Assembly (NCBI RefSeq): GCF_014218295.1
Contig: NZ_AP023287.1
Span: 4,836,001 to 4,900,000, forward strand
Direction of reading: 5' to 3'
Source of the DNA: Mycolicibacterium litorale
GTDB taxonomy: Bacteria > Actinomycetota > Actinomycetes > Mycobacteriales > Mycobacteriaceae
DNA: 64,000 bases
Shown here piece by piece: positions 54,964 to 57,639 of the stretch (position 1 is the first letter of the stretch; the number at the start of each line of letters is the position of its first letter). The position numbers and the translations under genes were made by a program. Below the pieces are notes generated by a model that saw only the letters and a program-made list of their open reading frames with translations, searched no databases and was not told the origin of the DNA.

Positions 54964-56355
54964 GTGGCCAAGGCACGTTCTCAATACCGCTGTTCGGAGT
55001 GCCGGCACCTCACCGCCAAATGGGTGGGCCGCTGCCCGGATTGCGGCACCTGGGGCACCGTCGAGGAAGTCGCGGTGGTCGCCTCGATCGCGGGTTCGCC
55101 CGCCCGGCGCGCGGTCGCACCCAACTCCCCCGCGGTGCCGATCAGCAGTATCGACCCGGGCCGCACGAGACACGACGCGACCGGGATCGGCGAACTCGAC
55201 CGGGTGCTCGGCGGCGGGCTGGTACCCGGATCCGTGACGCTGCTCGCCGGTGATCCCGGCGTCGGCAAGTCCACCCTGCTGCTCGAGGTCGCCCACCGCT
55301 GGGCCGCCTCCGGTCGGCGCGCGCTGTACCTGACCGGGGAGGAGTCCGCGGGCCAAGTCCGGTTACGCGCCGAGCGCACCGGCTGCGCCCATGACGAGCT
55401 GTACCTCGCCGCGGAGTCCGATCTACCGACCGCGCTCGGCCACATCGACGCGGTGGGTCCCAGCCTCGTCGTCGTGGACTCGGTGCAGACGATGTCCACC
55501 TCGGAGGCCGACGGCGTCACGGGCGGCGTCACCCAGGTCAGGGCGGTCACCACCGCGCTGACCCAGTACGCCAAGGGCGCGGCGGGGCCGGGCGGGATCG
55601 CGATGGTGCTCGTCGGTCACGTCACCAAGGACGGGGCGATCGCCGGGCCGCGCTCGCTGGAACATCTCGTCGACGTGGTGCTGCACTTCGAGGGCGACCG
55701 CGCCTCGACGCTGCGGATGGTGCGCGGTGTGAAGAACCGGTTCGGCGCCGCCGACGAGGTCGGCTGTTTCCAGTTGCACGACAGCGGGATCGAGGGTGTG
55801 GCCGATCCGTCCGGCCTGTTCCGCGACCAGCGCGACACTCCGGTGGCCGGGACCGCGGTCACCGTCACCCTCGACGGGAAACGACCGCTCATCGGTGAGG
55901 TGCAGGCGCTGGTGGGCCAGCCCACCGGACCGCATCCCCGCCGTGCCGTCAGCGGCATCGACTCGGCCCGCGCCGCGATGATCGCGGCGGTCCTCGACAA
56001 GCACACCAGACTGCAGGTGGGCCCCTGCGACATCTACCTGTCGACGGTCGGCGGGATGAGGCTGACCGATCCGTCGTCGGATCTCGCGGTCGCCCTCGCG
56101 ATGGCCTCGGCGCGTCAGGAGCGGGCGATGCCGGCCAACTCGGTGGTGATCGGCGAGCTGGGGCTGGCGGGCGATCTGCGCCGCGTGACCGGGATGGACC
56201 GCCGCCTGGCGGAAGCCGCGCGGCTCGGGTTCACCACCGCGGTGGTGCCGCCTGGGACGACGACGGTGCCGCCCGGCTTGCGGCTGCTTCCGGCTCAGAA
56301 CATCTCGGCGGCGTTGCAGGTGCTGTACCGCATCGCGGACAATGGCGGCCGATGA
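54964..56355 (+). CDS. radA: RadA, DNA repair/recombination ATPase
   Basis: A 463-residue protein: N-terminal C4 zinc finger (C10, C13, C24, C27), RecA-like core with Walker [10 protein letters not shown] near residue 96, the RadA-specific KNRFG motif, and a C-terminal Lon-like domain. It assists branch migration in recombination. Its TGA overlaps an ATG (ATGA at 56352-56355) that opens the first of five repeated micro-ORFs leading to disA. Confidence 0.95.
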
Positions 56356-56507
56356 GCGCTTGCGCGAAGAGCAGGAAGCAGCGATGAGCGCTTGCGCGAA
56401 GAGCAAAAAGCAGCGATGAGCGCTTGCGCGAAGAGCAAAAAGCAGCGATGAGCGCTTGCGCGAAGAGCAAAAAGCAGCGATGAGCGCTTGCGCGAAGAGC
56501 AGGCAGC
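56351..56507 (+). repeat. 32-bp tandem repeat, five copies, forming overlapping micro-ORFs between radA and disA
   Basis: Copies start at 56351, 56383, 56415, 56447 and 56479; copies 2-4 are identical, copy 1 differs at two bases and copy 5 is shortened to 29 bp. Each copy holds an ATG and encodes [11 protein letters not shown] (R for the first K of the pair in copy 1), with its TGA overlapping the ATG of the next copy (ATGA). The last micro-ORF runs on to 56533, past the disA start. The design resembles MIRU elements of M. tuberculosis, which also overlap flanking stop and start codons. Confidence 0.9.
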
Positions 56508-56523
56508 GCGCCCGGGAGGAACA

Positions 56524-57639
56524 ATGGCCGTGAAGACCGCCAGGACGGGCAGCAATGTCGTCCAGCTGGCCCGTCCGACGCTGCGGGAGACACTCGGCCG
56601 GTTGGCACCGGGGACACCGCTGCGCGACGGGCTGGAGCGCATCCTGCGCGGCCGGACCGGCGCGCTGATCGTGCTCGGGTACGACGACAGCGTCGAGACG
56701 ATCTGCGACGGCGGATTCGAACTCGACGTGCGCTACGCCCCTACCCGACTGCGCGAGCTGTCGAAGATGGACGGTGCGGTGGTGCTGTCCAGTGACGGCA
56801 CCCGCATCCTGCGCGCCAACGTCCAGCTCGTTCCGGATCCGTCCATCCCGACCGACGAATCCGGCACCCGGCACCGCTCCGCCGAGCGCACCGCGATCCA
56901 GACCGGTTATCCGGTGATCTCGGTCAGCCACTCGATGAGCATCGTGACCGTGTACGTGGCCGGTGAGCGGCACGTGGTTCCCGACACCCCGACGATCCTG
57001 TCGCGCGCCAACCAGACGATCGCCACGCTCGAGCGCTACAAGTCCCGCCTCGACGAGGTGAGCCGGCAGCTGTCGACCGCGGAGATCGAGGACTTCGTGA
57101 CGCTGCGGGACGTGATGACCGTGGTGCAGCGGCTGGAGATGGTGCGGCGGATCAGCCTGGAAATCGATGCCGACGTGGTCGAACTCGGCACCGACGGACG
57201 CCAGCTCAAGCTGCAGCTCGAAGAACTCGTCGGCGACAACGACAACGCCCGCGAGCTGATCGTGCGCGACTATCACGCCAACCCCGACCCGCCGACCCCC
57301 GCACAGGTCAGCGCGACGCTCGAGGAACTGGACTCGCTGTCGGACAACGAGCTACTCGACTTCACCACGCTGGCAAGGGTCTTCGGCTATCCGTCCACGC
57401 TCGAGGCGCAGGATTCGGCGATGAGCTCGCGCGGCTACCGGGCCATGGCAGGCATACCGCGGCTGCAGTTCGCCCACGTCGACCTGCTGGTGCGCAACTT
57501 CGGTTCGCTGCAGGGTCTGCTCGCCGCCAGCGCCGACGACCTGCAGTCGGTCGAGGGCATCGGTTCGATGTGGGCGCGCCACATCAGGGAAGGTCTGTCC
57601 CTGCTGGCCGAGTCGACGATCGCCGACCGGCTGGCCTGA
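56524..57639 (+). CDS. disA: DisA, diadenylate cyclase (c-di-AMP synthase)
   Basis: A 371-residue protein with an N-terminal DAC domain ([14 protein letters not shown] near residue 80; [11 protein letters not shown] near 115), a helical spine and a C-terminal helix-hairpin-helix DNA-binding domain ([15 protein letters not shown]). It makes c-di-AMP from two ATP and senses DNA structure; RadA is known to interact with and inhibit DisA. GGGAGG is 3 nt before the ATG at 56524. An in-frame ATG at 56488 inside the repeat was rejected. Confidence 0.95.

What the first reader, a model, noticed from the sequence alone, without database searches (positions are those of the whole stretch)
56351..56533. 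Tandem 32-bp repeat builds a chain of start/stop-coupled micro-ORFs from radA to disA
The radA stop, four micro-ORF junctions and the run into the disA start all overlap (ATGA, or out-of-frame overlap at the end). Every copy encodes the same 11-residue basic peptide MSACAKS(K/R)KQR. A ribosome finishing radA could pass along the chain by termination-reinitiation, so copy number might tune DisA and hence c-di-AMP. MIRU elements share the overlap logic but have longer units; this 32-bp type may be a distinct family.
Basis: partly seen in the sequence, partly recalled or inferred. Interest (0 to 1): 0.72.

Follow-up and report, generated by a model that had tools for sequence, protein, structure and literature searches.

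The report
Mobile 32-base start-stop relay repeat
A 32-base repeat is scattered through mycobacterial genomes, mostly at junctions between neighbouring genes, where its copies typically carry overlapping stop and start signals, so that it likely hands ribosomes on to the next gene and would thereby be able to insert and multiply without breaking the operon.

Summary
The array is real: five 32-nt copies between radA and disA, with ATGA overlaps at radA's stop and at four micro-ORF junctions; the fifth micro-ORF is longer and overlaps disA's start out of frame. It is not special to disA. The 22-nt core matches 51 times at 26 places in this genome (0 reversed), and at 18 places the TGA of a same-direction upstream gene overlaps it. 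The 20-nt core is in 135 of 198 genomes of the genus and in other families of the order. In this genome and close relatives, three compared junctions hold 0 to 5 copies; at two, the empty site is a plain ATGA overlap. In 40 of 41 testable arrays (of 57), stop-to-start hand-overs end at the downstream start (control 7%); 33-nt units form one long micro-ORF. Best reading: a short interspersed element with MIRU logic that likely preserves coupling by termination-reinitiation (untested). Tuning of DisA is unsupported: 2 of 80 orthologous junctions carry a copy and disA has its own Shine-Dalgarno. A T-A/C-G covariation hints at a folded core. The core strings were in no paper searched.

The parts
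54964..56355 (+). radA; its TGA (56353-56355) lies inside the first repeat core
   Evidence: ORF and sequence; 80 orthologous radA-disA loci
56351..56501 (+). tandem array, five copies of the GATGAGCGCTTGCGCGAAGAGC core at 32-nt spacing, last copy diverging after the core
   Evidence: TRF; core positions
56352..56387 (+). micro-ORF 1, [15 protein letters not shown] at both ends
56384..56419 (+). micro-ORF 2, [11 protein letters not shown]
56416..56451 (+). micro-ORF 3, [11 protein letters not shown]
56448..56483 (+). micro-ORF 4, [11 protein letters not shown]
56480..56533 (+). micro-ORF 5, [17 protein letters not shown], overlaps the disA start by 10 nt out of frame
56351..56370 (+). 20-nt core of copy 1 (GAYGA-GCGC-TY-GCGC-GARGA); further cores at 56383-56402, 56415-56434, 56447-56466, 56479-56498
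   Evidence: Y3-R18 covariation
56514..56519 (+). GGGAGG, Shine-Dalgarno-like site of disA
   Evidence: sequence; it lies in the 13 nt before disA that correspond to the 13-nt spacer of the empty site in L048
56524..57639 (+). disA (diadenylate cyclase)

Best explanation
The array is five tandem copies of a 30-33-nt interspersed repeat that mostly sits at same-direction gene junctions with the upstream gene's TGA overlapping its first copy, and it likely works as a translation relay that would let the element insert and multiply in operons while preserving coupling. Shown: the copies are dispersed; orthologous junctions in close relatives are empty or hold other copy numbers; at two of three junctions the empty site is a GATGA stop/start overlap and filled sites repeat GATGA at nearly every copy border; from the upstream stop, start codons overlapping each stop lead to the assigned downstream start in nearly every testable array. 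Inferred: ribosomes ending the upstream gene reinitiate at the overlapping ATG, read one short ORF per 32-nt copy (or one long ORF through 33-nt copies), and reinitiate at the downstream gene; copies spread by an unknown route and change number by slippage or recombination; selection removes insertions that break the relay. At radA-disA the array is then likely a lineage-specific passenger that would at most modestly change disA translation.
For: Dispersal: 51 core matches in G000 at 26 places, 0 control. By codon-composition calls, 19 of 26 arrays have a clear sense upstream gene, and in 18 of those the stop is a TGA overlapping GAYGA; in 20 arrays of relatives (picked for likeness to a three-copy array) 19. 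Empty/filled sites: L044 junction, a GATGA overlap in G423 and G424, one 32-nt copy in G425, G426 and G427, three in G000; pyrR-pyrB junction, 0 in G423, 1 in G425 and G426, 2 in G427, 3 in G424, 5 in G000; radA-disA, 0 in L048, L049 and L051, 1 in L050 and L052, 5 here. Relay: 40 of 41 testable arrays (57 listed) end at the downstream start, 30 with exact NTGA overlap, against 7.0% and 2.8% when 1-2 nt are inserted in the last linker. By type: 22 of 22 arrays of 32-nt units, 5 of 6 of 33-nt units, 2 of 2 mixed, 11 of 11 single copies; three of these are from one other family. Of four composites of a further family traced from the first core, three lead to a long downstream ORF and one runs off its contig. 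The review PMC12548453 (passages read) describes the same logic for MIRUs.
Against: No translation data. 16 of 57 listed arrays could not be tested: upstream flank unclear 4, upstream antisense 4, downstream unclear 2, downstream antisense 3, stop elsewhere 1, no start codon found 2. Six further arrays of G123 were looked at: one testable (relay intact), five not. In L033 the micro-ORF is in frame with the downstream gene rather than ending there. The downstream start is my own assignment (first ATG/GTG of the GC3-rich frame). Linkers do not pair with anti-Shine-Dalgarno better than shuffled ones (mean -6.0 against -5.6 kcal/mol, sd 2.7), so a built-in ribosome site is not shown. disA has its own GGGAGG. 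At radA-disA the right-hand end lacks ATGA: the one-copy relative L052 differs from the empty L049 by 30 nt after TGA. Some copies are antisense or intergenic (L001, L039, L040; the canB 3' copy in L048, L049, L050, L106, L088). No mobilising enzyme was identified.
Confidence: 0.72

Rival explanations
1. The conserved unit is a folded nucleic acid, not the micro-ORF: the 20-nt core forms a small hairpin GA-Y-GA-GCG(CUYG)CGC-GA-R-GA in RNA or single-stranded DNA that an unknown factor recognises for reinitiation, protection or copying; the stop/start overlap is secondary.
For: In one search (positions 3, 10, 11 and 18 left free) the 69 Mycobacterium arrays that I tabulated have T3-A18 in 53, C3-G18 in 13, and 3 others, which also have off-family loops. 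Positions 10-11 are TT or TC in 83 of the 92 arrays tabulated. Pairing 3 with 18 puts G.A/A.G pairs on both sides, as in tandem sheared G.A motifs, and the loop is of CUYG type (both motifs recalled; one search was only a listing). The same core is shared by elements of different length in other families.
Against: The array does not fold better than shuffles (z -0.63); the two classes may simply be two subfamilies; in the few GAC copies read (L036, L037, L040) the preceding base makes GTGA and the 3' tract can be GAGGAG, an alternative reason for the link; C-A, T-C and T-G combinations exist; the stem was fixed by the pattern, so it is untested; no A-T or G-C at 3-18 in the 92 arrays. The looser pattern also gave 3 reversed-control matches in 15 genomes.
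Confidence: 0.25
2. The element is a purely passive selfish repeat: micro-ORFs are not translated in any useful way, downstream genes start from their own ribosome sites, and the intact relay is only the footprint of insertion into ATGA plus tandem duplication.
For: An insertion that duplicates GATGA keeps the overlap automatically; disA has its own Shine-Dalgarno; linkers are not enriched for anti-Shine-Dalgarno pairing; copy number is evolutionarily loose.
Against: Duplication alone does not force each linker to keep frame: unit lengths 32 and 33 both occur and the last linker varies from 7 to 34 nt, yet 40 of 41 testable arrays end at the downstream start.
Confidence: 0.2
3. One reading: copy number at radA-disA is a rheostat for DisA and c-di-AMP.
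For: Five copies here against 0-1 in near relatives; PMC2734929 (abstract and passages) reports that longer tandem repeats upstream of fpg1 go with higher mRNA in a mycobacterium, so repeat length can matter.
Against: 2 of 80 orthologous loci have any copy; the same family sits at 25 other places in this genome; disA keeps its own Shine-Dalgarno.
Confidence: 0.07
4. REP-like element moved by a Y1 (RAYT/IS200) transposase.
For: Small, nearly palindromic interspersed repeat.
Against: Y1_Tnp (PF01797): none in G000, G123, G027, G099; present in 3 of 6 high-copy and 2 of 6 zero-copy Mycobacterium genomes.
Confidence: 0.03

Closest known systems
MIRU (mycobacterial interspersed repetitive units; Supply et al. 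1997, not seen itself, only as cited in PMC12548453, PMC2734929 and PMC4128351)
   Same: Dispersed and tandem in mycobacterial genomes; ORF inside the element coupled to its neighbour with -4 (ATGA) overlap; insertion at start codons; copy number varies.
   Different: Unit of 30-33 nt instead of the 40-100 bp stated in PMC2734929; a 20-nt core shared across several families of the order; 33-nt arrays form one long micro-ORF; no MIRU sequence was available to compare.
Translational coupling by overlapping ATGA/GTGA genes (review PMC12548453, passages)
   Same: Same overlap geometry, exact in 30 of 41 testable arrays.
   Different: Here the overlap is carried by a repeated, dispersed element.
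REP/BIME elements with RAYT transposases (recalled)
   Same: Short, nearly palindromic core, many copies between genes.
   Different: Mostly inside operons in sense with stop/start overlaps; no matching Y1 transposase.

Membership tests
MIRU | repeat unit of 40-100 bp (PMC2734929) | tested here: not met
   30, 32 and 33 nt, rarely 31, in Mycobacterium; only composites of another family are longer, 75-98 nt with one of 121
MIRU | internal ORF coupled to its neighbour with -4 nt overlap (PMC12548453) | tested here: met
   30 of 41 testable arrays have exact NTGA, 40 of 41 end within 12 nt of the assigned start; geometry only, translation not tested
MIRU | inserted at start codons / stop-start overlaps | tested here: met
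   empty GATGA overlaps at two of three junctions; at radA-disA the empty site has GATGA as radA's stop but not at disA's start
MIRU | sequence homology to the described MIRU consensus | not testable with these tools
REP/RAYT | associated Y1 transposase | tested here: not met
   absent from G000 and from three of six high-copy genomes
Rfam RNA families | match to a covariance model | tested here: not met
   no match up to E 1 in 56000-57000

The most novel reading that the evidence does not exclude
A folded 20-nt module, GAYGA-GCGC-UY-GCGC-GARGA, is an order-wide mobile 'stop-start cassette': alone it makes 30-33-nt elements in Mycobacterium and other families, joined to a second module it makes 75-98-nt MIRU-sized elements, and an unidentified trans factor reads its hairpin for ribosome hand-over or for copying; MIRUs may be one derived branch of this wider class.
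Probability: 0.25. Interest if true: 0.78.

Novelty: new variant of a known kind. Interest (0 to 1): 0.6.

Why it matters
It shows by empty/filled comparison how a very short repeat can colonise operon junctions while keeping their stop/start overlaps, offers many natural junctions with 0 to 27 copies for testing termination-reinitiation in actinobacteria, and warns that such an array upstream of an interesting gene (here disA) may be a passenger. If the core fold is real it points to an unknown factor shared across families.

Tried and rejected
Peptide selection: rejected, because the common core changes alter amino acids and the linkers vary. Promoter inside the array: no sigma-70-like site in 56200-56600 and no TANNNT on the + strand in 56300-56560. 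Terminator or global RNA structure: none. Rfam: no match. Plasmids: no blastn match at E 1e-3. Y1 transposase link: not seen. My first probe pattern had wrong letters and found nothing. M. tuberculosis MIRU comparison: the marker primer hit no held genome; passages of PMC4213456, PMC2639699 (section 10) and PMC2734929 (section 16) gave no consensus. Literature strings of the core: 0 papers; a mixed search gave 0. The script stopped with an error part-way through the other-family set; of the 11 rows printed there, one has a clear sense upstream gene (L163, stop overlapping GAYGA), six are unclear and four antisense, and the composites are therefore not in the relay count. The relay count (41 of 42) counted one array twice (L207 = L208) and was redone without it and broken down by type.

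Full report
What is there. Between radA and disA lie five copies of a 32-nt unit (TRF 56350-56501, 98% matches). radA's TGA and the start of the first micro-ORF share ATGA; four further ATGA joints follow; the last micro-ORF is 17 codons long and overlaps disA's ATG (56524) out of frame. disA has GGGAGG at 56514-56519. Neighbouring genes (lpqE-like, radA, disA, carbonic anhydrase, mutY) are named from recalled mycobacterial gene order and the ORFs.

It is a genome-wide family. The core GATGAGCGCTTGCGCGAAGAGC has 16 exact and 51 near matches (up to 3 mismatches) in the genome and none for the reversed control. They form 26 arrays of 1-6 copies. I judged flanking genes by stop-free, GC3-rich frames: 19 of 26 arrays have a clear sense gene upstream, and in 18 of these the stop is a TGA overlapping GAYGA; 21 have a sense gene downstream. 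Three have an antisense upstream call, four are unclear. In 20 arrays of relatives, brought in because they resemble a three-copy array and so a biased sample, 19 have the upstream stop there. In six arrays of the copy-rich genome G123 only three had a clear sense upstream gene, two of them with the stop there.

Distribution. GAYGAGCGCTYGCGCGARGA is in 135 of 198 genomes of the genus, up to 111 matches in one, controls 0. In the order it is in 47 of 249 genomes, 15 of 68 genera; the 13 genomes of other genera of the same family in that draw have none. Outside the order 3 of 268 genomes of the class have a single match each. Among 20 stretches fetched from other families, two families show 30-32-nt units, and a third shows composites with cores 75-98 nt apart (one 121) in which most have a second module between cores. 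Of four composites traced from the first core, three (L158, L166, L168) lead by overlapping starts to a long downstream ORF and L169 runs off its contig end.

Empty and filled sites. (a) L044 junction: G423 and G424 have a plain stop/start overlap, CCCGATGAGCAAGGC; G425, G426 and G427 have one 32-nt copy, G000 three; the filled forms repeat GATGA at each copy border except the right end of the G427 copy, which reads CGTTGA and gave no start codon in the relay test. (b) pyrR-pyrB (L035; genes named by recall from the protein sequence): G423 empty with an ATGA overlap, G425 and G426 one copy, G427 two, G424 three plus a partial one, G000 five at mixed 32/33-nt spacing. The more distant G434 is empty at both junctions, with ATGA and GTGA overlaps by eye. 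(c) radA-disA: L048 and L049 have GGCCGATGA plus 13 nt then ATG; L052 differs from L049 by 30 nt inserted after TGA; L050 has one copy; L051 has none in a different junction; 78 of the 80 best loci have none (the call that fetched them kept 80 of at least 555). So copies come, go and multiply on the scale of close species, and at two of three junctions the target was the overlap itself.

The relay. I followed start codons overlapping or next to each stop from the upstream gene onward. Of 57 listed arrays (26 of G000, 26 of relatives, 5 of other families) 41 were testable, which required clear sense genes on both sides, the upstream stop at GAYGA and a start codon; 40 end within 12 nt of the assigned downstream start and 30 have exact NTGA. 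Inserting 1-2 nt in the last linker leaves 7.0% and 2.8%. By type: 32-nt arrays 22 of 22, 33-nt arrays 5 of 6, mixed 2 of 2, single copies 11 of 11; no 30-nt array was testable; the G123 arrays add one testable, intact, of six. Some of these arrays are orthologous (for example L179 and L180 with L044), so they are not all independent. Copies of 32 nt give separate 11-codon ORFs; copies of 33 nt add whole codons to one long ORF that still ends at the downstream start. The exception, L033, runs in frame into the downstream gene. Arrays reach 25-27 copies (G013:C2, G123:C86, and at least 26 listed at G123:C109). That ribosomes actually make these hand-overs is inference. Linkers are not better anti-Shine-Dalgarno partners than shuffled ones.

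Is the core folded? With positions 3, 10, 11 and 18 left free (3 reversed-control matches in 15 genomes), I tabulated the 92 arrays that the cut listing showed for 8 of 15 genomes: T3-A18 in 76, C3-G18 in 13, three others. In the 66 Mycobacterium arrays of the two main types the link is complete (Fisher p 5e-14, which overstates it because copies are related). Position 3 pairs with 18 about the same centre as GCGC/GCGC, with G.A/A.G on both sides, and the loop is mostly C-T-Y-G. Against: C-A, T-G and T-C forms exist elsewhere, two subfamilies would look the same, and the folding energy is ordinary. I treat it as a lead.

Known or new. A 2025 review (PMC12548453, passages read) says MIRUs insert at start codons so that an internal ORF is coupled with -4 spacing. 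PMC2734929 (passages and one section) gives 40-100 bp for MIRUs and reports that repeat length upstream of fpg1 goes with mRNA level; PMC4128351 (passages) notes MIRUs in 5' UTRs. The present element works like a MIRU, is shorter, and could not be compared in sequence, so I do not file it as one. No paper in the held library contains the core strings that I searched; most subscription papers are not held.

Meaning for disA. 2 of 80 orthologous loci carry a copy and disA keeps its own ribosome site; the array is best seen as a likely passenger here. PMC3900455 (passages) states that disA lies in an operon with radA in a mycobacterium.

Noticed in passing
L048 4447-4466 (also L049, L050, L106, L088): A core copy in antisense orientation just 3' of the carbonic anhydrase gene in relatives; the window lacks it at the same place.
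   Followed up: partly
G123:C86:3055-3932, G123:C109:192963-193807, G013:C2:92874-93661: Giant arrays: 27 units of 33 nt, at least 26 listed units of 33 nt, and 25 units of 32 nt; 33-nt units keep one reading frame through the array.
   Followed up: partly
L158-L170, L175 (unnamed other family of the order): MIRU-sized composites with cores 75-98 nt apart, most made of the same 20-nt core plus a second GAGCGAG-rich module.
   Followed up: partly
L033 (G000:C1:631100-634300): A two-copy 33-nt array whose micro-ORF is in frame with the downstream gene, so it could add an N-terminal extension.
   Followed up: no
L040 (G000:C1:1338500-1341900): Six 33-nt GAC/GAG-type copies with GTGA instead of ATGA borders at a place with no sense gene called upstream.
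   Followed up: no
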